64,000 nucleotides of DNA from Pseudomaricurvus alkylphenolicus. GTDB lineage: Bacteria; Pseudomonadota; Gammaproteobacteria; Pseudomonadales; Cellvibrionaceae. The notes beneath the pieces are model-generated. The model had not been told where the DNA came from. It ran no database searches and saw only the letters and a program-made list of their open reading frames with translations. Made by a program: the position numbers and the translations under genes. The DNA lies in the NCBI RefSeq assembly GCF_011683955.1, contig NZ_JAAQPI010000003.1:558001-622000 (forward strand), written 5' to 3'. Below, piece after piece: positions 10,012-24,559 of the stretch; the stretch's first letter is position 1; each line of letters begins with the position of its first letter.

Positions 10012-13000
10012 CTACATGAAATCTGCAAAGTTTTCTGAACTCATCACGGTAGCATCGGCCACCCCCGCCAAAGTCAGAATATGGCTCACTTCACCTTCGT
10101 CAACCGCCGAATTGCCGTTGCCGTCGTCGAACAGAAACAGAGCCGAATCCACGCCATTGTCAGTCAGATAATAGAAGGCGTCGAAGCCATTAATCTGTGT
10201 GTTGAGCAGTACAAGTTCGGCCATCTGCGATGCAGCCTCCAGGTCAACAACATCGCTGCCAGTGTTTACCAACAATCCAGCATCGACGTTCAGAACGAAG
10301 CCCTCACCGGCGACATCACCTAGTTGAAACAAGGTGCCATCCCCCCGCAGATTGTCGCTGACCAGATGCGGGATCAGCACCGAGTCCGTGTCTGGGTTAA
10401 ATGATTCTGCGGCGTCTCCAATAGACTCTGCCGCCAGCGAATAGAGTCCGTCCGCCTGTGCGGAAAGGATTACCGAACCCTCCCCACTGGCGAGGATCAA
10501 TTGTTGTTCGAGATCCAGCTCCTCTAACAGCGCCTGCGGCAAGATCAGTTGACTGCCTGCTGTTAGTAACAAACCGCCGACACCATCCAGAGCGGCAACT
10601 GTAGACATATCTACCTCACCCTCGATGATGAGATCTGCTCCGCCCAGGTTTAATCGACCCGCTGTCAGTCGAGTATCAGACGTAAAGGTGATCTGGTCGC
10701 CCTCCTGGAGATCAAGGTTCCAGGTATAGTTAACACTGATATTCTCCTGAGTACCGGAGTCACCCGCACTAACGGCAGCGCCAAAAGCATAGTTGACAAA
10801 GTCATCTGGATTGTCTGCTGCTGCCGCCAACGTTTGGTAGGCCCCCAGTAAAGTGGCTTCTCTGGCTTCGCTGGGAGCTTGCTCAAATGCCTGCAGCGCC
10901 GCGTCGTAGGCAACCACTTTGGCTTCAAAGGCCGACCCGTCCATCTCTCCGATCAGGGTAGCGTCTACAACGACGTCTGCACCTTGGTTGGCCAGCCTGA
11001 AATCATCGGGGGAGACACCATCAATCACACTCAGGTTGACACTGCCGGATCCAGAGCCACTGATCTCGATCAATCGCAACGATTCACCAATAATCGCCGC
11101 CTCAGCGTCCGTTCCGAGAAGGCTCACATCAGCGATTCCGGACATGGCAATGCGCAACGTTTCTATATCACCATCGATGAGGTTCAAACTCACGATCTCA
11201 ATGGCGGCATCGCCGCCGGTCGTTAATACCGCTGTGTTCTCGCCGACAACACTGGAAAATTCGATTGCTCCAATGGCCAGCTGCGCACCGTAAGTGTTGA
11301 GCGCGATGTTCATGAGATCCAAGCCGGCATTCTCGCCTGCACGGATATCGCCTACGACATTCAGATCTCCTGGTAATGGTGTCTCACCCTGCTCTGACAT
11401 GAATTCGGAGGAAATTTTAAGACTGCTGAAATTCACATTGCCTGCATTTGGGGCTATCACGCCAGCGAGAGGAAAATCGCCAATGCTGGAACCCCCCTGT
11501 AATGTAAGACTCACGGACTCGGCCGAAAACTCTGGCTGTTGATTCAAAAACGCGTCTTCCGGCACCTGCGCAAAAGGTTCGACAACGATCTGGCGATGAA
11601 GGTATGACGGAAATCCAGGAATGGACTCTACAGAGAATATCTGAAGCGGAATATCCGCATGCAACCCCTCTATGAGAGATTCGATGTCGACACCCGACAC
11701 CAGACTGTCGAGAGCCTGGATAGCGCCCAGCTCTTGTCCATAACCGGAGGCGTCTATGGTGCCATTGAAAAAGCTGGAATCCCAAACAACGCGCGTGTCG
11801 CGATCGGACGCCCCATTGCCCAGGACGGTTATCGCACGTCCGGCCTGCTCCGCAGTCGTGAATATGATGCGTTCGCCAGCAGGGGCCTGTATCTCGCTGC
11901 CGGTACCATTGAAATCATACAGGCCTACGATGAAGCCACCCAAAATCGACGAATCGGATAGGGCCACATCTGCATTTCCGCCTGCAACAGTAGCATATTG
12001 ACCATTGGACAGAGCACCAAGCAGCAATGTACTGCTGCCACTGACGGAGACCCCACCAAAATCAATATCGATTCGATCACTGGAATCTCCCACATTCTCC
12101 AGAGCTTCCAATTGATCGATCAGAACATTGGCAACGTACCCGCAGTCGCTGTCACCACTGACGACGCTCCCACCATCGATCCCCTGAAACTGAGCCGCGG
12201 TCATTTCGAGGGTAGCATCCATGACCAAGGGATCGATCAACACGGTGTCAGCCCCACCCAGAGTGGTTTCGGCATGCAACTCCGCCCCTGCAGCCCAGAT
12301 GGTCACCAGACCAACGTTGATTCCGTTGCCAGCCATCAAATCCAGGTCCAGAGCATGGTCATTTAAATCCGTTACATTGACGGTAACCTCGGCGCCCTCT
12401 GCAGGCAGGAAGTTCTCAACCCCAACCGCTTCAATAAAGTCGGCGCTGAAGGTCCAGGTACCACTGCCCAGGGACTTCAAGCCCTCCAGATCCACCGGCG
12501 TGCGCTCATAACCGTCCTCGCTCTGTAGCAAGGTGACATTCGAGGGCGACTCCAGTGATGTTCCCGCGGGCAGGGTTCCTCCCTTCACACCGGTAAACAC
12601 CGTGGTGTAGGGATTGAAATCCAGGCCCGCGTCGGTGATTACCACATTGCCTTCTGCGTACTGAACTCCAGCTTCGGTGAAATATTTATCCAGTTGCTCC
12701 GCACTCAGGGTCAAGGTAGCGCCGTTTGCCACGTAAACCTGCAACTGCAGATGCTCCCCCAACAGACTCAGGTCCAGCATCTCGCTCAGGGTGGCATCTT
12801 GCTCCAGGTGGATGTTCAATACTGCCTGCTGCTGACCAAACTCGTCAGGCATCACTTGCCAGCTGGCTTCACTGAGCTGGTCCAATTGCGAAGCATTCAT
12901 GGACAGGTAGCCGCCATGGGGAATTTCTATGGCATCAATACCCGTCAGGGTGACATTCGTGAAATTGTTATGACAATCCGCCATCTGCAAGGTCAGCTTC

Positions 13001-14805
13001 CCCGTCACCCGACTGGCATCCACCGATTCCAGCTCGGGAAGACCGACCAAACCACCAGCCAGGGTGACATCCGCCGATGAAGACAGCACCAGGTTCTTGA
13101 CACTGTCGCCCGCCAGGGACTCAATGACAGAATCACCACCCACTACATCGACTTGAAGGCGCTCGGTATTATTGATGTCAATCCCAGCCACCTTTAGGGT
13201 ACGGGGTGCAAAGCTCTCTGCCAGACTGGTCACCGTCACCACGGACTGCTCCACCAGTTCAGCATAACTGGCGGACAAACTACCGATACTGTCGTAGCCA
13301 CCGGAAAACGTCTGCAGGCCATCACCTTCCATCAGAAAGTGGGTGCTGGTCGGTACGTTCAGAAAGCTGACGGTGCCCAAGGGATTGCTCTTCAAGCCCA
13401 GAATTTCAATATCCCTGCTATCGCTGCTGAACATAATGTGGTGCTTTAGATCCTCCCCATCTGCCGCATCGTAGAGCGAAGTGACCATATAGATGGGCAC
13501 ACCAGCCGTACTAAAACCGTGACCCGTACCTTCGACGTTTCCACCAAGTCCAATATCAATGCGTGTCCCTGAATTGTTGCCCTGTATAATCCAGTGCTCA
13601 CACCCTGCCGGGACCGGCTGAATGTCGTCAACCTTCACCTCGTGAAAGTTGAGGAGGCTCATCCCCAGCAGCTGGCCCTCCAACGCACTGAAATCAACGC
13701 TAAACCCTGACCCCAACTCAACCGGCTGCAGAAAAGTCAGGTCCTCGCTGGCCGTGATAATCAGCTCATTGCCAATATACGAGTCTCTGGAGATATCTAT
13801 AAGGGGCGACTCTGGAAAATTAATAATAATTGTAGAGAAGTACGAATAGGGACCATCGTGCAAGGGCCTATCAAATCCTGTCAGGGACCGCTGTATCTCA
13901 ATGTCGTTGGCAGTATCGAAGCTGTCGGACAGGCTGCCGGCGTAGTCATAGTGAAGAACATCACAGGGGTCGACTGAAAAATAGGGTTGAAACCCAATGT
14001 CCGCATCCACTACCACAACCTTGCCCTGCTGCCCTGCAACCTTTCTTACGCCTTCATTGACAAACACTCCGGCCAGCTGCTCCGCACTCAGCGTTAAGAC
14101 TGCTTCGTTTGAGATATTGGCAACCAGGTGGACATCGGGATTGGCCTCAAGGTTCGACATCTCCGACAGTTGCAGGTCCTGGGCCACGTCAATCTCTATT
14201 GTGGGCGTAACATCAATGATTGAATTGTCAAAGTCGTAGGGGCTCAGGTACTCAATATCAATAGCGTCGGAAGCCAGTATATACGCCTGATCGGCTGACA
14301 GAGTCAGCGTCACACTGCCCAGCAACGTCAATTGCTTTACTTCACCAACATCGACACCGACCATCGCCAACAGTTCATCAAGAGTCGTGTCCTGCGCCAC
14401 TAACAGCTCTAGCTGACCATCCGAGTCAATCCCCGCGCCAACGGCCTCTATCTTCTTGGCCAAGTTGAATTGGTCAGACGCCCCTGCCCCATTGATCAAC
14501 GCCAAAACCAACTGATCGGCATTCACCCCGGCGCCACCGCCACTGACCCAGTACTCCAACCCCTCGGGATTGGGCTCCCTATTGAACAGATTGTGGTACA
14601 GATCGATAACCATCTCTTCACGGCTCATAGAGCCTTGACCCTGAAGATATTCGGGTTGTTCATTGACGATGTTGGCGCGAAACTGCTCTAAGGTGAGATG
14701 ACCGCTTTCGATCTCCTCTGCCCAGTAGGCAAGTCCTGCGTCAGCGGCAGGGCGACCGAGAAGGCCCATAAATATTTGTTGAATCTGCTCCGAAACGGTA
14801 GGCAC
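10012..14805 (-). CDS. Giant DUF4214 protein, probable type I secretion substrate (1597 aa)
   Basis: A probable secreted or surface protein of unknown function. Residues 1–120 form a DUF4214 domain (SEQIQQIFMGLLGRPAADAG… then LYHNLFNREPNPEGLEYW). It is followed by about 1400 residues of repetitive, acidic, Gly/Leu/Asp-rich beta-type sequence with recurring short motifs such as LTLSAEQL, VVVTDAGLDF-like and LGGADTVLI. There is no signal peptide. The C-terminus (ILTLAGVADATVMSSENFADFM, given here only to mark its character) matches the short hydrophobic/acidic tail typical of type I secretion substrates. Start GTG 14805 has AAGGAG 6 nt upstream. No ABC exporter of that system is in the window. 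It has a shorter tandem paralogue upstream. Confidence 0.85.
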   Translation of the reverse strand: MPTVSEQIQQIFMGLLGRPAADAGLAYWAEEIESGHLTLEQFRANIVNEQPEYLQGQGSMSREEMVIDLYHNLFNREPNPEGLEYWVSGGGAGVNADQLVLALINGAGASDQFNLAKKIEAVGAGIDSDGQLELLVAQDTTLDELLAMVGVDVGEVKQLTLLGSVTLTLSADQAYILASDAIDIEYLSPYDFDNSIIDVTPTIEIDVAQDLQLSEMSNLEANPDVHLVANISNEAVLTLSAEQLAGVFVNEGVRKVAGQQGKVVVVDADIGFQPYFSVDPCDVLHYDYAGSLSDSFDTANDIEIQRSLTGFDRPLHDGPYSYFSTIIINFPESPLIDISRDSYIGNELIITASEDLTFLQPVELGSGFSVDFSALEGQLLGMSLLNFHEVKVDDIQPVPAGCEHWIIQGNNSGTRIDIGLGGNVEGTGHGFSTAGVPIYMVTSLYDAADGEDLKHHIMFSSDSRDIEILGLKSNPLGTVSFLNVPTSTHFLMEGDGLQTFSGGYDSIGSLSASYAELVEQSVVTVTSLAESFAPRTLKVAGIDINNTERLQVDVVGGDSVIESLAGDSVKNLVLSSSADVTLAGGLVGLPELESVDASRVTGKLTLQMADCHNNFTNVTLTGIDAIEIPHGGYLSMNASQLDQLSEASWQVMPDEFGQQQAVLNIHLEQDATLSEMLDLSLLGEHLQLQVYVANGATLTLSAEQLDKYFTEAGVQYAEGNVVITDAGLDFNPYTTVFTGVKGGTLPAGTSLESPSNVTLLQSEDGYERTPVDLEGLKSLGSGTWTFSADFIEAVGVENFLPAEGAEVTVNVTDLNDHALDLDLMAGNGINVGLVTIWAAGAELHAETTLGGADTVLIDPLVMDATLEMTAAQFQGIDGGSVVSGDSDCGYVANVLIDQLEALENVGDSSDRIDIDFGGVSVSGSSTLLLGALSNGQYATVAGGNADVALSDSSILGGFIVGLYDFNGTGSEIQAPAGERIIFTTAEQAGRAITVLGNGASDRDTRVVWDSSFFNGTIDASGYGQELGAIQALDSLVSGVDIESLIEGLHADIPLQIFSVESIPGFPSYLHRQIVVEPFAQVPEDAFLNQQPEFSAESVSLTLQGGSSIGDFPLAGVIAPNAGNVNFSSLKISSEFMSEQGETPLPGDLNVVGDIRAGENAGLDLMNIALNTYGAQLAIGAIEFSSVVGENTAVLTTGGDAAIEIVSLNLIDGDIETLRIAMSGIADVSLLGTDAEAAIIGESLRLIEISGSGSGSVNLSVIDGVSPDDFRLANQGADVVVDATLIGEMDGSAFEAKVVAYDAALQAFEQAPSEAREATLLGAYQTLAAAADNPDDFVNYAFGAAVSAGDSGTQENISVNYTWNLDLQEGDQITFTSDTRLTAGRLNLGGADLIIEGEVDMSTVAALDGVGGLLLTAGSQLILPQALLEELDLEQQLILASGEGSVILSAQADGLYSLAAESIGDAAESFNPDTDSVLIPHLVSDNLRGDGTLFQLGDVAGEGFVLNVDAGLLVNTGSDVVDLEAASQMAELVLLNTQINGFDAFYYLTDNGVDSALFLFDDGNGNSAVDEGEVSHILTLAGVADATVMSSENFADFM

Positions 14806-14929
14806 ACGGCACTCCTTTGCATGTATCGATGGTCAAATAGCCGGGAATTATAGAGGGAAGTGGTTGATACAAACAACGCCCATTCATCGCGGCCTTCTTC
14901 CCATGAACCGTCTTGGGACTAACGGGGTT

Positions 14930-16738
14930 CTAGACAAGAATGGCCTCTGCCTGGCTTGGCTGACCCAACAGAGGAACAATTTGATCTGTAGTCGAAGGTG
15001 GATATTTGACGCGAATTTCTGAGCCGACAGGAAGCTCAGAAAACACCTCCTCTCCAACTTCATCATAAAGGGCGCCCCATAACTCGATATATCCCAATTC
15101 AGCTGCGTAACCGGAAAGATCGATATCACCTTCCTGCTTTGTCCCCTCTAGATCGGAGAAGTCCCAGATGACATGTGTATTGCGCTCAGGCTCTCCATAT
15201 ACCTGGATGGGGCGTTCAGCCTGCACGGCTGTCGAAAAAACGACTTCGTCAGCAGGCAAGGTGTCACCATAGTCAACCAGAATCACGGAGAAATCGCCTA
15301 GGTCTGCCGATTCTGCGAATACGACCTCGTGGCCCCCGAACTCACTGTCTGATAAAGCACCCTCGTAATGATCCCATAGAAACAATTCGGTGCTGCCAGA
15401 GACAGCGACGTTGCTTAGATTGATATCAACGTCTGCGCTTTGGAGCATAGCCAGCTGATCCACAACCACATTGACGGGATGTTCAGTGCCCTCCTCAATA
15501 ATAACGCCAGACTCTATGCCCATAAATTGCGCTGCGGTTAGATCGAAAGTTTCGGGGCCAAACTCAGCTTCTACTCTGACCTCGTCGGCTCCGCCAAGGT
15601 TTGTGGATTCGTGTAATTCAGCCCCTTGGCCATCTATGGTGACTACACCGATGTCGAAACCAGCTGCTTGTAACACATCCAAGTCGAGCCGCTGCCCCCC
15701 AAGATCCAAGACGTTAATAGTAGCCTCGGCACTGTCTGCAAGTGAGAAGTTCTCTACTCCGATCCTATCGATCTGATTCGCAGTTAACGTATAGACACCC
15801 GATGACAACGATTGAGCATCCAAAGACCCGAAGGCGCGTTCGTGCCCGTAAAGATTCCTCTCTACTGTCACCGCCTCCCCGAATGCTGGCGTCTCCGATA
15901 GGGTGCCACCAAGTCCGAAGTATCTGGAATGGTCAAAAGGATCGAACCCCAGCCCCGCATCGGTGATAGTTATTGACCCTGATTGTTCCTCGGAAAGACG
16001 GATACCCTGACGGGCGAAATTAACCTCCAGTTCTTCAGCACTGATAGTCAACGATGCTCCTCCTGAAATCACCGCCTTTAGCTTCAATCCAGGTATGCCC
16101 AATTCCGGACCGATAGCTTCGGACAACAGCAAATCAGAGGAGACATTCAGTTCAACACTCGCCTGGGCATCCACTTCATGGTATTTAACGCTCAGAATCC
16201 TCGCGCTAAACAGTTCAGCATAATTATCCTCAATCGAGAGGGTCGCTCCCCGGTCTAAGACAATCTGCTGGATTCCGCTCAAATCAGAGGCATCTGTACC
16301 CAACAACTCTGCCAAGGAGGTATCTTCGGTGACAACCAGCACTTTCCCACCGGCACCATTAGAGGGGAGTTGAGATACCTCTACCTTCAACTCCAGCACT
16401 TCTCGGTCCCGTTCAGAGGCCCCGTTGATCAACGCCAACACCAGTTGATCAAAGTTCACACTGGAGCCACCACCATTCAACCAGTATTCCAGACCTGCTG
16501 GCTCAGGAGCTCGCTGAAACAGATTGTCGTATAAGGTGATGATCGCTTGCTCGCGATCCATAGAGCCCAGGCCTTCGGCGTAGTCTGGTTGCTCATTAAC
16601 AATATTGGCTCTAAATTGCTCAATGGTCAGCTTGCCGGTAGAGATCTCCTCTTCCCAGTAGTCGTGTCCTTGCTGATTAGCGACACGGCCAAGCAGGCCT
16701 ATATAGATTTGTTGAATTTGCTCAGAGAGGGTGACCAC
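14930..16738 (-). CDS. Shorter DUF4214 paralogue of the giant protein (602 aa)
   Basis: A tandem paralogue of the downstream 1597-residue protein. It shares the DUF4214 N-terminus (SEQIQQIYIGLLGRVANQQG, LFQRAPEPAGLEYWLNGGGS) and then aligns along its length to about residues 690–1080 of the large protein: ITDAGLGFDPF / ITDAGLDFNPY, GVENFSLADSAEATINVLDL / GVENFLPAEGAEVTVNVTDL, HVIWDFSD / RVVWDSSF. It stops where the large protein goes on for about 500 more residues, so it lacks the secretion-type tail. Start: the first GTG at 16744 overlaps the AAGGAG ribosome site. GTG 16738 has normal spacing and aligns with the paralogue's start, so I prefer it. Both genes share GCAAAGGAGTGCC upstream. Confidence 0.82.
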   Translation of the reverse strand: MVTLSEQIQQIYIGLLGRVANQQGHDYWEEEISTGKLTIEQFRANIVNEQPDYAEGLGSMDREQAIITLYDNLFQRAPEPAGLEYWLNGGGSSVNFDQLVLALINGASERDREVLELKVEVSQLPSNGAGGKVLVVTEDTSLAELLGTDASDLSGIQQIVLDRGATLSIEDNYAELFSARILSVKYHEVDAQASVELNVSSDLLLSEAIGPELGIPGLKLKAVISGGASLTISAEELEVNFARQGIRLSEEQSGSITITDAGLGFDPFDHSRYFGLGGTLSETPAFGEAVTVERNLYGHERAFGSLDAQSLSSGVYTLTANQIDRIGVENFSLADSAEATINVLDLGGQRLDLDVLQAAGFDIGVVTIDGQGAELHESTNLGGADEVRVEAEFGPETFDLTAAQFMGIESGVIIEEGTEHPVNVVVDQLAMLQSADVDINLSNVAVSGSTELFLWDHYEGALSDSEFGGHEVVFAESADLGDFSVILVDYGDTLPADEVVFSTAVQAERPIQVYGEPERNTHVIWDFSDLEGTKQEGDIDLSGYAAELGYIELWGALYDEVGEEVFSELPVGSEIRVKYPPSTTDQIVPLLGQPSQAEAILV

Positions 16739-16977
16739 AGGCACTCCTTTGCTCGTGTAGATGTGTAGAAAACCGTGGGATTATAGGGATTGAAGAGTCA
16801 TTAGGGAATCGGAGCCGTCAGGAATCCTTGTTTCTACTCCCCTGCCGAGTCTACGAGATATTCCGCAATTACCGAAATCCTGTCATTTTTAAAAGCAAGC
16901 TCAAACCAACAGCGGACCGGCGCATCTATCGACCGCCGGCCGCAACCGACGGAGCCCGACAACTCTTTGGTAAAACA

Positions 16978-17655: not shown

Positions 17656-18429
17656 GTGAGTCGCAGAATCGCTATGGACAATTGCCCCAATTTTCGCCAA
17701 TTGGGTGGTTATCAATCTCGCTCTGGCGGCACAGTAAAGCATAACCTGTTATTTCGCTCCGGCTCCCTGGCCGAGCTGAGCGACAGTGATCTGCAACGCC
17801 TCGCCGACCTAAACCTGTCTATTATTATTGACTTCCGTCGTGACAGCGAAGTGCAACAAAACCCTTATCGCCTGCCTGCCAACCTCGCAGACAAGCAAAA
17901 GCAATTGACTGTAGCTCCTGGCAGTCTGGCGGCTGCGTTTGAAAAAGGCTGCGCCACTCATGCCGCGCAATATATGGTCGACGTCAATCGCACCCTCGCA
18001 CTTGAACATAGAGATGCCTTTTCCGATTTTTTACACGAGGCACTGAATGTTGAAAACGGTGGCCTCCTCTTTCACTGCAACGCTGGCAAAGATCGCACAG
18101 GTATCGCCGCCGCGTTGATTCTTATGGCTTTGGACATCCCTCGCGAGCAAATTATCGGGGATTACTTGCTGACAGGGGAATATTTTGTACCTGAAGAGCA
18201 GGCGCCCACGGTACTGCAGCGCCTGAAGGATTTCGACGATGACATTGATATCGAAAAAGGTTCTGCCATGGAAGCTCTTCTGCCCCTGATGAGTGTAAGG
18301 CGCGAGTATATACAATCTGCACTTGATGCAGTCGATACAGTCTACGGCAACGAGAGCAACTATCTCAGCGAGGCATTAAATTTCGACAGTAAAAAACAAC
18401 AGGCATTAAGAGTAAAATATCTCGACTAG
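17656..18429 (+). CDS. Tyrosine-type protein phosphatase (Y_phosphatase3 family)
   Basis: A predicted cytoplasmic phosphatase of 257 residues. The family N-terminus NFRQLGGYQSRSGGTVKHN is followed by LLFRSGSLAELSDSDLQ and the general-acid region IIIDFRRDSE. The active-site loop HCNAGKDRTG has catalytic Cys141 and Arg147 (CX5R). Members remove phosphate from phosphotyrosine, phosphoserine or phosphoinositides. The frame is open from 17593 (TTG), but GTG 17656 has AAAGGA at good spacing. ATG 17674 is an alternative. It converges on the 53-residue peptide gene and faces the HprK-like kinase cluster, so it might reverse that kinase's action. This last link is inference only. Confidence 0.88.
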   Translation: MSRRIAMDNCPNFRQLGGYQSRSGGTVKHNLLFRSGSLAELSDSDLQRLADLNLSIIIDFRRDSEVQQNPYRLPANLADKQKQLTVAPGSLAAAFEKGCATHAAQYMVDVNRTLALEHRDAFSDFLHEALNVENGGLLFHCNAGKDRTGIAAALILMALDIPREQIIGDYLLTGEYFVPEEQAPTVLQRLKDFDDDIDIEKGSAMEALLPLMSVRREYIQSALDAVDTVYGNESNYLSEALNFDSKKQQALRVKYLD

Positions 18430-18480
18430 AAGAAGTGTTTACTCTGCAATGTAGATACCGCAGTCCTGTCCGCCACGACT

Positions 18481-18642
18481 TCAGTTAATTGTAGATTCAG
18501 ATTCGTAAGGATCAAACTGTGCGCTGGCCTGCTCTGCTGTCAGTAACAATGTGACGGCTGGCGCCACCACAGCTGCTTTGCCTGCAGTTTCAAGGAACTT
18601 GCGACGGGATTCATTTTCAAGCTGTTCGTTGTCGTTAGTCAT
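18481..18642 (-). CDS. 53-residue twin-arginine leader peptide (putative modified-peptide precursor)
   Basis: A short gene with AAGGA 9 nt before ATG 18642. The product has a charged N-terminus, the twin-arginine motif SRRKFLE (residues 12–18), a hydrophobic stretch AAVVAPAVTLLL (23–34) and a possible AxA cleavage site ASA at 39–41. Cleavage would leave only a 12-residue tail, QFDPYESESTIN, with one Tyr, two Ser and one Thr. It is the last gene of the strand-coherent nucleotidyltransferase–kinase cluster, 158 nt after the kinase. It may be a precursor peptide for the kinase/nucleotidyltransferase, or the remains of a Tat-exported protein. The small size and intact reading frame favour a real gene. 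Confidence 0.65.
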   Translation of the reverse strand: MTNDNEQLENESRRKFLETAGKAAVVAPAVTLLLTAEQASAQFDPYESESTIN

Positions 18643-18800
18643 TGTGGTTTTTCCTTAAGGCATTATTCTCGCCGATAGCTCCAGCAAAAAACGTTCCTCA
18701 CAATCGGATAACGCATTGAGATCAATGAGTTACTGAGTGGATCGCACCATTTCGAACCAATTCAAACACCCGTTTGTCAATAGGGCTGACACCCAGATCA

Positions 18801-19982
18801 CTAACTGGGTTTATGTGCCAATTCTCGCGATAAATGGCGCATTAACTCCACCGCCTGATTCAAGCTGTCCACCTCCAGTCGATAGCTTGGGGTCCTCTCA
18901 ATCCAACTGAGTAAGGCCGCGACCTTCTCAGCATTCAGTATCGTGTCAACAATCAAACACTCCGCCATCAGCATTTGCAGAGTATCCAGGGCCGACAAGG
19001 GCTTCAACGTGGACGGGCCACCAGGGGTGTACTGCGGAAACACCAGTGCCCCCACTGGCCTTAGCGTATCTGCAGAGGGGATTGAGCCAGACGGCGGCCG
19101 CAGGTAGCGAACCCTTTTGCCGTCACCTCGATTGTGCATTGTTAGACCGGGGAGATGTGGGCAAAGACTGCTGAGCACTTCCACGCCCGTGTCTTTTACA
19201 CAAGTTGCCAGGGGAACCGGCTGCACCATCATTCCCGGCAGCTGGAGCAATGCAACTTCGTCAGAAAAGTATTCGAAACCATTGCGTGTCAATGCCGTGG
19301 TTAGCGTTGATTTTCCGCTGCCGGGAGCAGCAGGCAGCAGATAGCAGCGCTCTCCGTCGCCAACCACACCAGCGTGGATGTCCAAAAAGAAGCCATGTTG
19401 GATTACGGCTGTCTGCCACACTTGGCTCTTCACCACCGGTGCCAGCTCCTGAAGGGAAGCGCATTGGTTGACCTGTCGGCGATCTTTGAATAGCGACAAA
19501 CCTTCACCTTCAGTCGTCACCACGTCCAGTGTCGCCGTGGGTTCCGTCGCAGCCTGTGTGGTTAGATGTTCCAACACCGGGTGCACCAGCGCCAACTGCT
19601 TTTCATTGTTAAACCTCACGCGAAAGCAGCTGCTCAACAAACCATAGTGACGCTCGGCCACGAAGATTGAATCAGAGTAAGTAGCTGCCACGCCAGGAAG
19701 CTCCTCGTGCGGCTCCTGACGTTTAACCTCATACCCCTTGAGCACACCGAGCGATTGCAGAAACTCTCTCGTTTGAAGACAATATTCCTGGGCAGTGAAT
19801 TCAGTCACGTTGAACGTAGCTTGCAGGCTCTGTTCAATCTCAGCCTCATTCTTGCCCTCTTCCAACAAACACCAGATATAGGTCGCGGTGGTATTGAGAT
19901 GGAAGAGTTTCTGAGCCTGTTCATCAAACAGCACGCCCTGATTGTCCAGGAAAAACAGTCGAGTCCCTTCAGCGGGTTGCAT
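18801..19982 (-). CDS. PqqD-like domain fused to HprK-type serine kinase
   Basis: A 393-residue fusion. Residues 1–85 resemble PqqD/RiPP-recognition proteins (GVLFDEQAQKLFHLNTTATYIW is the characteristic core), and would bind a leader peptide. Residues ~100–390 resemble HPr-kinase-related proteins: DIHAGVV around 201–207, P-loop PGSGKST (220–226) and SDE at 240–242 as acid/Mg site. Family members phosphorylate peptides or proteins, for example the C-terminal Ser of some lasso peptides. Start: ATG 19982 has GGAGG at 6-nt spacing and overlaps the end of the nucleotidyltransferase gene by 14 nt, so the two are translationally coupled. No lasso cyclase or protease is nearby. Confidence 0.88.
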   Translation of the reverse strand: MQPAEGTRLFFLDNQGVLFDEQAQKLFHLNTTATYIWCLLEEGKNEAEIEQSLQATFNVTEFTAQEYCLQTREFLQSLGVLKGYEVKRQEPHEELPGVAATYSDSIFVAERHYGLLSSCFRVRFNNEKQLALVHPVLEHLTTQAATEPTATLDVVTTEGEGLSLFKDRRQVNQCASLQELAPVVKSQVWQTAVIQHGFFLDIHAGVVGDGERCYLLPAAPGSGKSTLTTALTRNGFEYFSDEVALLQLPGMMVQPVPLATCVKDTGVEVLSSLCPHLPGLTMHNRGDGKRVRYLRPPSGSIPSADTLRPVGALVFPQYTPGGPSTLKPLSALDTLQMLMAECLIVDTILNAEKVAALLSWIERTPSYRLEVDSLNQAVELMRHLSRELAHKPS

Positions 19983-21189
19983 CAATTTCCTCCGTGCCCG
20001 ATTGACGATGTTTTAGTGCTTTCAGCCATTGCCACAAGGGAAGTGCCAGATAGTCGTGTAACAGCTTGTAGGGGATGTACAGAACGAATAGGGCATCCGG
20101 AATAGCGATACTGTTGAAGTGCTGAACGCGCGGCTGCAACAGTGTGCGCAGCAGGTAGCGCCAGCGGTCCCGGGCACGTTCACGCATCCGCCAGTGCAGG
20201 TGATTGAAATCGTATATCGAACGCTCAGCTTCGTCACCCTCGAAGTATCTGGTCGTTATTTGGTCGGTCAGGCGCTGTGCCTCGCGGTCGTTGTTAAGCC
20301 AACGTTGTGCATGTTGAGGTAGCGACGCAGATAGCAGCCTATGCGCGAGCCCCAGTCCGAGAAGGGTTGCCCTGGCAACCCCCTGCGCCTGCGCCCGTTG
20401 CCGGAGTATAGACCAGTCAAGGTCCGGATGGCTGTGAACGTACGCGGCTACATCCGCCACCCACTTGAGCTTTGTCCACCGCTCTTTGCTGCCATGAAGG
20501 CAGACGGCCATCAGCTCGTCCTCCGGGGTCAGGCTGAGCAGCTCTTTACCGGAGATGGTAACCGGCTTTACCCGTGACCATATGGCACTGTAGTCGAGGT
20601 CGTAGGCCACCGTGCGCGGCGCAAAATGCCAATGGGGCTCGATGGGTAATCCAGGCCCAAATAGGATCTCCTCGCCGGCATACTGGAGAAAACTCTTCCA
20701 TTGACGGGGCGTCAGCTCCCAGTCATGGGTGTAGCCGAGTTTTTTGAGCTGGTCCAGGCAAGGTTGGGTCTGAGCCTGGAGAATAAGAAAATCGAGATCA
20801 CGAAAGCTGCGAAGGTTGAGTGCGCCATAGGCGTTTAACGCCAGAGTTGGGCCTTTAAAAGGAACCGCAGGTATACCGGCGTTTGACAGATGTTCAAGTA
20901 TACTCACCAGCTGCACAAACAGTGCTTCATTGCCTGCTTGTTGCTGTTCAAGATGCGTCCGGCTCGCTTCGAGGATATCCCCAGGAACGCAATCTGAGGC
21001 TGATCCAATAAGATTGTGGCAAAGCAGGCCGGTCACTCCATGATCCAGGGCGCTTTGCACCAGAACGGTCCAATCTACTGTGTCAGCGTAGGCAAGAAGT
21101 TGACTGGTGAGCAGGTCATTCGCAGCTGGCGAAGACGCGGCCAGCAGTAGCGACTGCTCAGGAGATAGCTTATGCGTGTTGATTTGCAC
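19969..21189 (-). CDS. Family-5 nucleotidyltransferase (NTP_transf_5)
   Basis: A 406-residue protein of the uncharacterised nucleotidyltransferase family found in RiPP and HprK-related clusters. The pol-beta-type core is visible at VPFKGPTLALNAYGAL and RSFRDLDFLI, with the metal pair Asp131/Asp133. The later segment (KWVADVAAYV) and a basic helical C-terminus follow the family pattern. It would transfer a nucleotide to an unknown acceptor, possibly the phosphorylated peptide. It overlaps the kinase gene by 14 nt. The GTG start at 21189 lacks a good ribosome site. A better site and ATG lie 24 nt upstream in frame but are cut off by TGA directly before the GTG. Confidence 0.88.
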   Translation of the reverse strand: MQINTHKLSPEQSLLLAASSPAANDLLTSQLLAYADTVDWTVLVQSALDHGVTGLLCHNLIGSASDCVPGDILEASRTHLEQQQAGNEALFVQLVSILEHLSNAGIPAVPFKGPTLALNAYGALNLRSFRDLDFLILQAQTQPCLDQLKKLGYTHDWELTPRQWKSFLQYAGEEILFGPGLPIEPHWHFAPRTVAYDLDYSAIWSRVKPVTISGKELLSLTPEDELMAVCLHGSKERWTKLKWVADVAAYVHSHPDLDWSILRQRAQAQGVARATLLGLGLAHRLLSASLPQHAQRWLNNDREAQRLTDQITTRYFEGDEAERSIYDFNHLHWRMRERARDRWRYLLRTLLQPRVQHFNSIAIPDALFVLYIPYKLLHDYLALPLWQWLKALKHRQSGTEEIDATR

Positions 21190-21213
21190 TCAAAACTGAC
21201 CCAGGCTTTGCAT
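21190..21213 (-). other. Seven-codon in-frame mini-ORF ending in TGA directly before the nucleotidyltransferase GTG
   Basis: AAAAGGGGG precedes ATG 21213, which encodes MQSLGQF then TGA (21192–21190). The next base triplet is the GTG start of the nucleotidyltransferase, in the same frame. It may be a leader peptide with reinitiation, a nonsense mutation, or a read-through codon. Confidence 0.45.
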
Positions 21214-23563: not shown

Positions 23564-24235
23564 TCAAGTAGTCACAAAAGCCGTTGATATCGTTTGTAGA
23601 TTGGCGGCCATCCGCGCCTGCTCATTGGCAACCACTTTGATTTGTTCCGCACCAGAAACCGTTTCAAGTGTCATTTGGTTGATGGTTTCTATGTTGCGGG
23701 TGATTTCCGCCGTGGTGGCCATGTCGGAAATCGCCATAACCTCAGCGTGGATGTTCTCCAGAGCACCTTCAAGCCCCCCGGTTTGGGACGCCGTCTGGTT
23801 TGCCAGTTCCGTGCTTTCCTGAATCGCTTCGAATGCTCTCTGAGACATCTGATTAAAGCTGGAAATAATCGCTTCACGACCAGTACTCACTTCAACCGTT
23901 GTTGCGGTTTCTTCCGCCGCACTGGCCAGCTGGACGCTGGCTTTGCCAATCTCATCAATAGCGCCGGAGAAGACATCGAACATTTGATTTAGATGACTCG
24001 CTGTCTTTCCCAGTTCGTCCTGAGCCAAGACTTTCGCCTTTACCGTAAGGTCCTTGTTTTTAGCCGATTCCGAGACCGCTATGGTCAGACAGGAAAGCTG
24101 CTTTGAAATGGCACTGACCAGAAACCAACCAGTCAGCATTGTCACAACGGCGAGCACCAGGGACAAGGTCAAAAAAGTCGCGAAAGCGTTGGTCGCTTCT
24201 TGTTGTTGACGGGCACTGTAGTACCAAGTCAATAA
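23564..24235 (-). pseudogene. Decayed methyl-accepting chemotaxis protein
   Basis: The frame keeps the second membrane helix (FATFLTLSLVLAVVTMLTGW), the HAMP start (LTVKAKVLAQDELGKTASHL) and signalling-domain segments (SAAEETATTVE, NIETINQMTLETVSGAEQI). It lacks the first membrane helix and periplasmic sensor, and lacks the hyperconserved hairpin tip (the NLLALNAAIEAARAGE-type segment). Upstream of about 24235 the frame runs on to 24481 through sequence unlike any chemoreceptor. The gene is therefore truncated at the 5' end and internally deleted, and cannot signal to CheA. Confidence 0.75.
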
Positions 24236-24559
24236 TGACGCAGTTCGAGGGAGTGTCAAGTTACTGAGACAGGATTTTGGTTTTTTACGTTTTGTTAATT
24301 TGATGGGTTGTGGGAGCGGGCAATAAAGGGGCAGATTGATCTGGATGCACCAAAATGAGGCACGGCGCATGAGTACTTCCCTAGCCACACTCCTAAGAAC
24401 AATGCTTCCCAAAATAACCAAAAATGAGCCCCGAAGACCGATCAAAAAATAACCAGGCCACCTGTTTTTTGCATCCTGCACGATAGCTGATATCCTTCCC
24501 CCATTTTACGTATCCAAATACCCGCATACCTTTATCCATAATCAACATACGGAGAACAA
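24236..24559. other. Non-coding stretch upstream of the chemoreceptor fossil
   Basis: The open minus-strand frame here continues the fossil but has no chemoreceptor character (Lys/Pro/Arg-rich). It may be the scar of a deletion or insertion that removed the receptor's 5' half. The end at 24480–24559 carries the ribosome site (ACGGAGAAC) of the next plus-strand gene. Confidence 0.4.

What the first reader, a model, noticed from the sequence alone, without database searches (positions are those of the whole stretch)
17656..21213. Minimal PqqD–HprK kinase / nucleotidyltransferase cluster with a 53-residue twin-arginine peptide and facing phosphatase
Seen: a nucleotidyltransferase gene overlaps by 14 nt a gene for a PqqD-like domain fused to an HprK-type kinase. 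The next same-strand gene encodes 53 residues: a twin-arginine motif, a hydrophobic stretch, an ASA site, and a tail of only 12 residues rich in hydroxyl side chains (QFDPYESESTIN). A CX5R phosphatase gene converges on the peptide gene. Known: PqqD-type domains bind RiPP leader peptides; HprK homologues phosphorylate some lasso peptides; family-5 nucleotidyltransferases recur in such clusters and in HprK-related systems. Inference: the peptide is the substrate, its leader doubles as a Tat signal, and the tail is phosphorylated and perhaps nucleotidylated before export, with the phosphatase as eraser. No cyclase, lasso protease or radical SAM enzyme is present, so this is not a known RiPP class.
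Basis: partly seen in the sequence, partly recalled or inferred. Interest (0 to 1): 0.8.

Follow-up and report, generated by a model that had tools for sequence, protein, structure and literature searches.

The report
Kinase cassette with Tat-signal peptide
A small bacterial gene set pairs a peptide-gripping kinase and a nucleotidyltransferase with a tiny secretion-signal peptide; related sets recur in other Proteobacteria and probably make a phosphorylated peptide whose leader doubles as its export signal, a variant of a peptide class published in 2026.

Summary
The genes are as described. Three belong together: a nucleotidyltransferase (PF14907), a PqqD-HprK fusion kinase and a 53-residue twin-arginine peptide. 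The phosphatase probably does not (no homologue in 66 other loci). Six peptide pairs, none including the window's, show purifying selection. Unexpectedly, cassettes of the separate-PqqD "HPr-rel-A" type carry a Tat-signal protein just upstream of the kinase (27 of 35 by rule, 3 more by eye; background 14 of 354 frames). Both families share a proline inside the Tat hydrophobic region that most control Tat signals lack. Best reading: PqqD grips the Tat signal, HprK phosphorylates a tail hydroxyl, the nucleotidyltransferase elaborates it, Tat exports it. "Not a known RiPP class" is too strong: the linear polyphosphorylated peptides of PMC13381572 use an RRE, an HprK-like kinase and an NTP transferase. 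This is a Tat-leader variant; no chemistry is shown.

The parts
19969..21189 (-). Nucleotidyltransferase, PF14907 (NTP_transf_5), 406 aa
   Evidence: PF14907 E 7.6e-53; a relative is in 29 of 31 fusion loci scanned; K112, R127, D131, D133 kept in 55 of 55 aligned relatives
18801..19985 (-). PqqD domain fused to HprK-type kinase, 394 aa (ATG at 19982 gives the 14-nt overlap)
   Evidence: PF05402 and TIGR04352; PDB matches TfuB1, TbiB1 and HPr kinase/phosphatase; G222, G224, K225, T227, D242 and H204 invariant in 12 aligned fusions
18481..18642 (-). 53-aa peptide: leader shaped as a Tat signal (SRRKFL, hydrophobic stretch with a proline, ASA), tail QFDPYESESTIN
   Evidence: leader HMM and A2 alignment; TIGR01409 14.6 bits, just below its cut-off of 16.7; only copy in the genome

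Best explanation
The cassette makes a linear, post-translationally modified peptide. The PqqD (RRE) half of the fusion kinase binds the peptide's leader, probably at the hydrophobic stretch with its conserved proline, which is at the same time the Tat signal. The tethered HprK half then phosphorylates a hydroxyl of the short tail (Y46, S48, S50 or T51 in the window). The nucleotidyltransferase probably adds a further group to the phosphate, as PsmN is reported to add hexose in pseudomycoidin. The finished precursor is released to the Tat translocon and cut after ASA by the general signal peptidase. Shown by sequence: the genes, the conserved partnership, the intact active-site residues, the leader features, a tatC gene in the genome. 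Inferred: binding, phosphorylation, second modification, export and the purpose.
For: Conserved neighbourhood: leader HMM (8 seeds, all from fusion loci) hits at E <= 0.01 within 1.4 kb of the kinase in 28 of 32 loci, plus L099 (E 0.15) 3 bp away (L042 adjacency). Genome level: 14 of 14 fusion genomes have the peptide, including G771 and G471, which gave no row to the query alignment and whose kinase loci lack it. Nucleotidyltransferase in 29 of 31 fusion loci with K112, R127, D131, D133 kept in 55 of 55. Kinase: 28 of 30 fusion rows on one branch (93/92; 98/96 with L102 included), H204, K225, D242 invariant. N-terminus matches TfuB1 (6.9e-11) and TbiB1 (1.8e-9), C-terminal part matches HPr kinase/phosphatase 1ko7 (4.5e-4). 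Purifying selection in 6 of 6 pairs, leader dN below tail dN in 6 of 6. Proline in the hydrophobic region: 23 of 25 by script, against 6 of 30 control Tat signals. Precedents: LppK phosphorylates S3 of LppA (PMC13381572); HprK homologue and PsmN in lasso peptides (PMC8498205). In G144 a PF11397 glycosyltransferase is fused to the PqqD-HprK protein.
Against: No biochemistry. The window tail lacks the xSG just after the A-x-A site that 17 of 25 aligned relatives have, so the LPP site cannot simply be carried over. The window leader scores just below the curated Tat cut-off and L097 has KR in place of RR. Peptide absent at L052, and not adjacent at L093 and L096. In the LPP work, deleting lppN changed nothing in the heterologous host. 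A proline-containing RRE motif in a hydrophobic signal is an analogy with [Y/W]xxPx[L/V/I], not a demonstrated binding site.
Confidence: 0.6

Rival explanations
1. The kinase and nucleotidyltransferase act on something else (a glycan, lipid or a larger surface protein), and the Tat peptide is a periplasmic partner or regulator that is never modified.
For: 13 of 32 fusion loci have exopolysaccharide or capsule genes within about 7 kb (annotation; Pfam); several also have large cadherin/Ig-like proteins. Tails vary from Gly-rich to Lys/Arg-rich to Cys-containing.
Against: A PqqD/RRE domain fused to the kinase points to a peptide substrate; peptide and fusion kinase co-occur even when unlinked; no background rate for polysaccharide genes was measured.
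Confidence: 0.2
2. The 53-aa gene is a small Tat protein of another kind (for instance like the formate-dehydrogenase-region TAT family) that lies here by chance.
For: Best NCBIfam hit of the peptide is TIGR02811 formate_TAT, E 0.00012, 22.3 bits; G144's peptide also hits it, E 0.0066.
Against: Both lie far below the TIGR02811 cut-off of 48.45 bits; the leader is shared with peptides beside fusion kinases elsewhere; no formate dehydrogenase was seen among the adjacent genes examined.
Confidence: 0.08
3. The peptide is a decayed remnant of the longer Tat-signal protein of separate-PqqD cassettes.
For: Those cassettes carry 129-302-aa Tat-signal proteins in the same place.
Against: Short versions with conserved leaders recur across fusion loci and are under purifying selection; the window frame is intact with a good ribosome-binding site.
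Confidence: 0.07

Closest known systems
Linear polyphosphorylated peptides (LPPs), Bacillota (PMC13381572; passages and section 6 seen)
   Same: RRE, HprK-like kinase and uncharacterised NTP transferase acting on a linear precursor with conserved N-terminus and variable C-terminus; loci often among polysaccharide genes
   Different: LPP: discrete RRE, SpI-like leader peptidase, MsbA-like exporter, leader motif YxxPxVLxHQxIxFETxxS. Here: RRE fused to the kinase, Tat-type leader, no dedicated peptidase or exporter seen in the adjacent genes examined
Paeninodin / pseudomycoidin lasso tailoring (PMC8498205, passages seen)
   Same: HprK homologue phosphorylates Ser; nucleotidyltransferase PsmN adds one or two hexoses to the phosphate; PqqD-like B1 protein
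   Different: No lasso cyclase or B2 protease among the adjacent genes examined; phosphorylated residue there is the C-terminal Ser, here the C-terminal residue is Asn
HPr-rel-A system (NCBIfam TIGR04352, TIGR04353)
   Same: HprK-related kinase, PqqD-type protein, PF14907 enzyme; and, as found here, a Tat-signal protein upstream of the kinase
   Different: PqqD separate, substrate candidate 129-302 aa; the window proteins score below both curated cut-offs
SynChlorMet cassette (TIGR04248 ScmD, TIGR04249 ScmC)
   Same: PqqD-like and HprK-like proteins, weak matches (E 0.011; E 1.3e-5 for the S. meliloti fusion)
   Different: Far below cut-offs; not studied further
Bufferins (PMC12452194, passages seen)
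   Same: RiPP precursor whose leader is an export signal; authors suggest the partner protein masks the signal until modification
   Different: Sec signal and MNIO enzymes on Cys; the words Tat and twin-arginine do not occur in that text

Membership tests
LPP | RRE (PqqD-like) domain | tested here: met
   PF05402 above cut-off; lasso B1 proteins in PDB search; fused instead of discrete
LPP | HprK-like kinase and NTP transferase | tested here: met
   TIGR04352 E 9.5e-31 and PF14907 E 7.6e-53; LppK and LppN themselves were not compared
LPP | Leader motif YxxPxVLxHQxIxFETxxS | tested here: not met
   Not present in the 53-aa sequence (motif)
LPP | SpI-like peptidase and MsbA-like exporter in the cluster | tested here: inconclusive
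   Not among the six proteins scanned around the cassette; the rest of the genome was not searched
HPr-rel-A (TIGR04352/TIGR04353) | Scores above the curated cut-offs | tested here: not met
   106.9 of 200 and 20.1 of 35 bits
HPr-rel-A (TIGR04352/TIGR04353) | PF14907 enzyme next to the kinase | tested here: met
Lasso peptides | Macrolactam cyclase and B2 protease | tested here: inconclusive
   Not among the six proteins scanned around the cassette; genome not searched
Tat substrates | Twin-arginine signal | tested here: inconclusive
   SRRKFL, hydrophobic stretch, ASA present; TIGR01409 14.6 bits against 16.7; genome has tatC; export not tested
TIGR02811 formate_TAT | Score above cut-off | tested here: not met
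   22.3 of 48.45 bits
RiPPs in general | Enzymatic modification of a ribosomal precursor | not testable with these tools
   needs mass spectrometry

The most novel reading that the evidence does not exclude
A broad family of Tat-dependent RiPPs exists in Proteobacteria, in which one stretch of sequence, a hydrophobic region with a fixed proline, is both the docking site for the RRE-kinase and the Tat signal, so that the kinase masks the signal until the tail carries a phosphate-linked (perhaps glycosylated) group. It would unite short peptides with fused RRE-kinases and 129-302-aa proteins with separate PqqD. Lying often near exopolysaccharide genes, the exported phosphopeptide may serve as an anchor or primer of the matrix.
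Probability: 0.3. Interest if true: 0.85.

Novelty: new variant of a known kind. Interest (0 to 1): 0.62.

Why it matters
If true, it gives a substrate to the HprK-related kinases and PF14907 enzymes of Proteobacteria (TIGR04352 and TIGR04353 did not occur in the open-licence papers searched), widens kinase-made linear RiPPs beyond Bacillota, and shows a leader that is read by two machines in turn, the modifying enzyme and the Tat translocon. It makes a concrete question testable with three genes: which tail residue is modified, and does modification license export?

Tried and rejected
Phosphatase as part of the system: rejected, since phmmer found no relative at E 1e-3 in frames of the other 66 loci. 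Structure of the fusion: single-sequence AlphaFold2 gave pLDDT 34.6 and is not used; no alignment was sent because its rows came from sources the tool does not list. Promoter and terminator scans: 3 promoter-like sites against 3.0 expected and 8 terminator-like against 4.1, not used. Genome-contig scan: one distant relative only, an Omnitrophota contig; no leader hit there. Phage families: none. A decayed-remnant reading was considered and ranked low. Polysaccharide link: noted in 13 of 32 loci but no background measured, so kept as a lead.

Rows dropped or special: L053 (Gemmatirosa, 40% of the query matched) was left out of the 32; it has no hit to the peptide HMMs, though a Tat-like Cys-rich segment follows its kinase. 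L052 matches only part of the PqqD region. L102 was counted among the 35 separate-kinase loci, but its hit runs 32-377 with one stop inside and the tree puts it beside the fusions; counted as a fusion it would make 29 of 33. G543 and G515, hits with stops inside, were not fetched. L048 (kinase and peptide each in two frames) was counted as having the peptide, was not mended and was left out of the tree; L042 was not in the tree either.
Full report
Observation. The four genes are present at the stated places. The window lies at C34:558001-622000 of an 8.9-Mb genome, G000. The nucleotidyltransferase and PqqD families score above their Pfam cut-offs; the kinase part matches TIGR04352 at 106.9 bits, below the cut-off of 200, so it is a relative and not a member of that model. 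The genome holds one PF05402 protein, two PF14907 proteins and two HprK-related kinases; the second pair, at C34:19-21 kb, is a separate cassette.

Distribution of the fusion. In the 97 nearest genomes only G000 has a hit covering the PqqD part; five congeners have only the kinase part. In 390 genomes of the order, at E <= 1e-14, only G000 and G144 do. tblastn on plasmids found 30 records, 19 with at least 80% of the query covered, mostly Rhizobiaceae and Leisingera; I fetched 19 of the 30. A profile of 12 fusions (A1) searched 398 genomes of the phylum and matched 92 at E <= 1e-15; counting G000, 13 proved to be stop-free fusions, and three more hits that start in the PqqD region contain stops. 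Forty stretches around these hits were fetched.

The small gene. A leader HMM from eight peptides was run on stop-to-stop frames of all loci (14865 segments). Every hit at E <= 0.01 lay within 1.4 kb of a fusion kinase. Of 32 fusion loci, 28 have such a hit (eight are the seeds) and L099 has an adjacent peptide at E 0.15; L052, L093 and L096 have none. Searching 31 whole genomes with the peptide alignment A2 found it in 14 of 14 fusion genomes, with up to six copies (G634), and in G771 and G471 away from the kinase; of 17 genomes without the fusion, two had weak hits in long frames (E 7.2e-4 and 0.0037). Of the 14, eleven gave rows to A2; G617, G771 and G471 did not. In A2 the second R and M1 are invariant and the first R, G21, A24 and L33 nearly so. 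Seventeen of 25 rows have a Ser followed by G, S or C just after the A-x-A; the window row does not. Six pairs of close relatives give dN/dS of about 0.08-0.42, with the leader slower than the tail in all six.

Partners. The nucleotidyltransferase is in 29 of 31 fusion loci scanned, missing in L052 and L121; L042's contig ends too early. Its K112, R127, D131 and D133 are kept in 55 of 55 aligned relatives. The window's phosphatase has no relative in the other 66 loci. In G144 the kinase carries an N-terminal PF11397 glycosyltransferase domain, E 7.1e-70. In a kinase-domain tree of 65 rows, 28 of 30 fusion rows sit on one branch (93/92); L121 and L052, poorly aligned, fall outside, and L102 sits at its base (98/96).

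Separate-PqqD cassettes. In 35 loci with a kinase not fused to PqqD, a rule for RR plus an uncharged hydrophobic stretch finds a Tat-signal frame 150-480 bp upstream of the kinase in 27; L105, L114 and L130 have one by eye, making 30. L102, L109, L113, L115 and L128 have none. The same rule rings in 14 of 354 frames more than 1.5 kb away; these are mechanical frames, not curated genes. The proteins are 129-302 aa. This includes G000's second cassette (L033 7847-8626).

Shared leader feature. A proline 7-20 residues after the RR occurs in 23 of 25 fusion peptides by script (three rows were wrongly anchored; by eye all 25 have it), 25 of 30 separate-cassette proteins, and 6 of 30 control Tat signals, taken as the loci returned for the TIGR01409 search of 12 genomes. 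In the fusion peptides it sits at a nearly fixed offset (17 at 15, 5 at 16). I read it as a docking residue for PqqD, by analogy with the [Y/W]xxPx[L/V/I/F/A] motif of lasso RREs; this is inference. The fusion's N-terminus best matches the lasso RREs TfuB1 and TbiB1 in the PDB.

What is known. LPPs combine SpI peptidase, RRE, HprK-like kinase, NTP transferase and exporter; LppK phosphorylates S3 of the core; deleting lppN had no effect in the host used (PMC13381572). Lasso tailoring gives the precedent for phosphate and then hexose (PMC8498205). Bufferins give the precedent for an export signal inside a RiPP precursor (PMC12452194). Searches for HprK + PqqD + twin-arginine + RiPP, HPr-rel-A and HprK-related kinase, TIGR04352/TIGR04353/PF14907 and LPP-type terms gave no description of this Tat association in the open-licence library; subscription papers are not covered.

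Setting. Polysaccharide or capsule genes lie within about 7 kb in 13 of 32 fusion loci (L036, L038, L049, L050 by annotation; L046, L047, L054, L091, L093, L094, L096, L097, L098 by Pfam). The other loci were not all scanned, no background was measured, and none was identified among the proteins scanned beside the window cassette.

Verdict. A real, conserved three-gene system; most likely a Tat-leader variant of kinase-modified linear RiPPs.

Noticed in passing
L033:7847-10908 (G000 C34, about 17.8-20.9 kb): Second cassette in the same genome: 259-aa Tat-signal protein, short frame in the PqqD place, HprK-related kinase, PF14907 enzyme.
   Followed up: partly
L042:1281-3272: Glycosyltransferase PF11397 fused to PqqD-HprK, with a divergent 59-aa twin-arginine peptide.
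   Followed up: partly
L162-L170: Extra peptide copies far from the kinase, up to six in one genome; in L166 one lies beside an ABC transporter with a C39-like domain and an OEP outer-membrane protein.
   Followed up: partly
L040, L043, L046, L047, L091, L092: These tails share a pattern like PG-W/N-G-x-GDKNHxHxGPP, a candidate conserved core.
   Followed up: no
L036, L049, L050, L043, L091; window 10012-16744: Large cadherin/Ig-like or DUF4214 proteins lie near several cassettes.
   Followed up: no
L048:4639-7304: In Ensifer adhaerens Casida A both kinase and peptide are each split over two frames, whereas strain M8 has intact copies.
   Followed up: no
L053:5876-6100: Gemmatirosa: a Tat-like, Cys-containing C-terminal segment follows the kinase, preceded in the same frame by what looks like a PqqD-type stretch.
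   Followed up: no
window 23564-24481 (-): Frame resembling a chemotaxis receptor that looks broken or rearranged (from reading).
   Followed up: no
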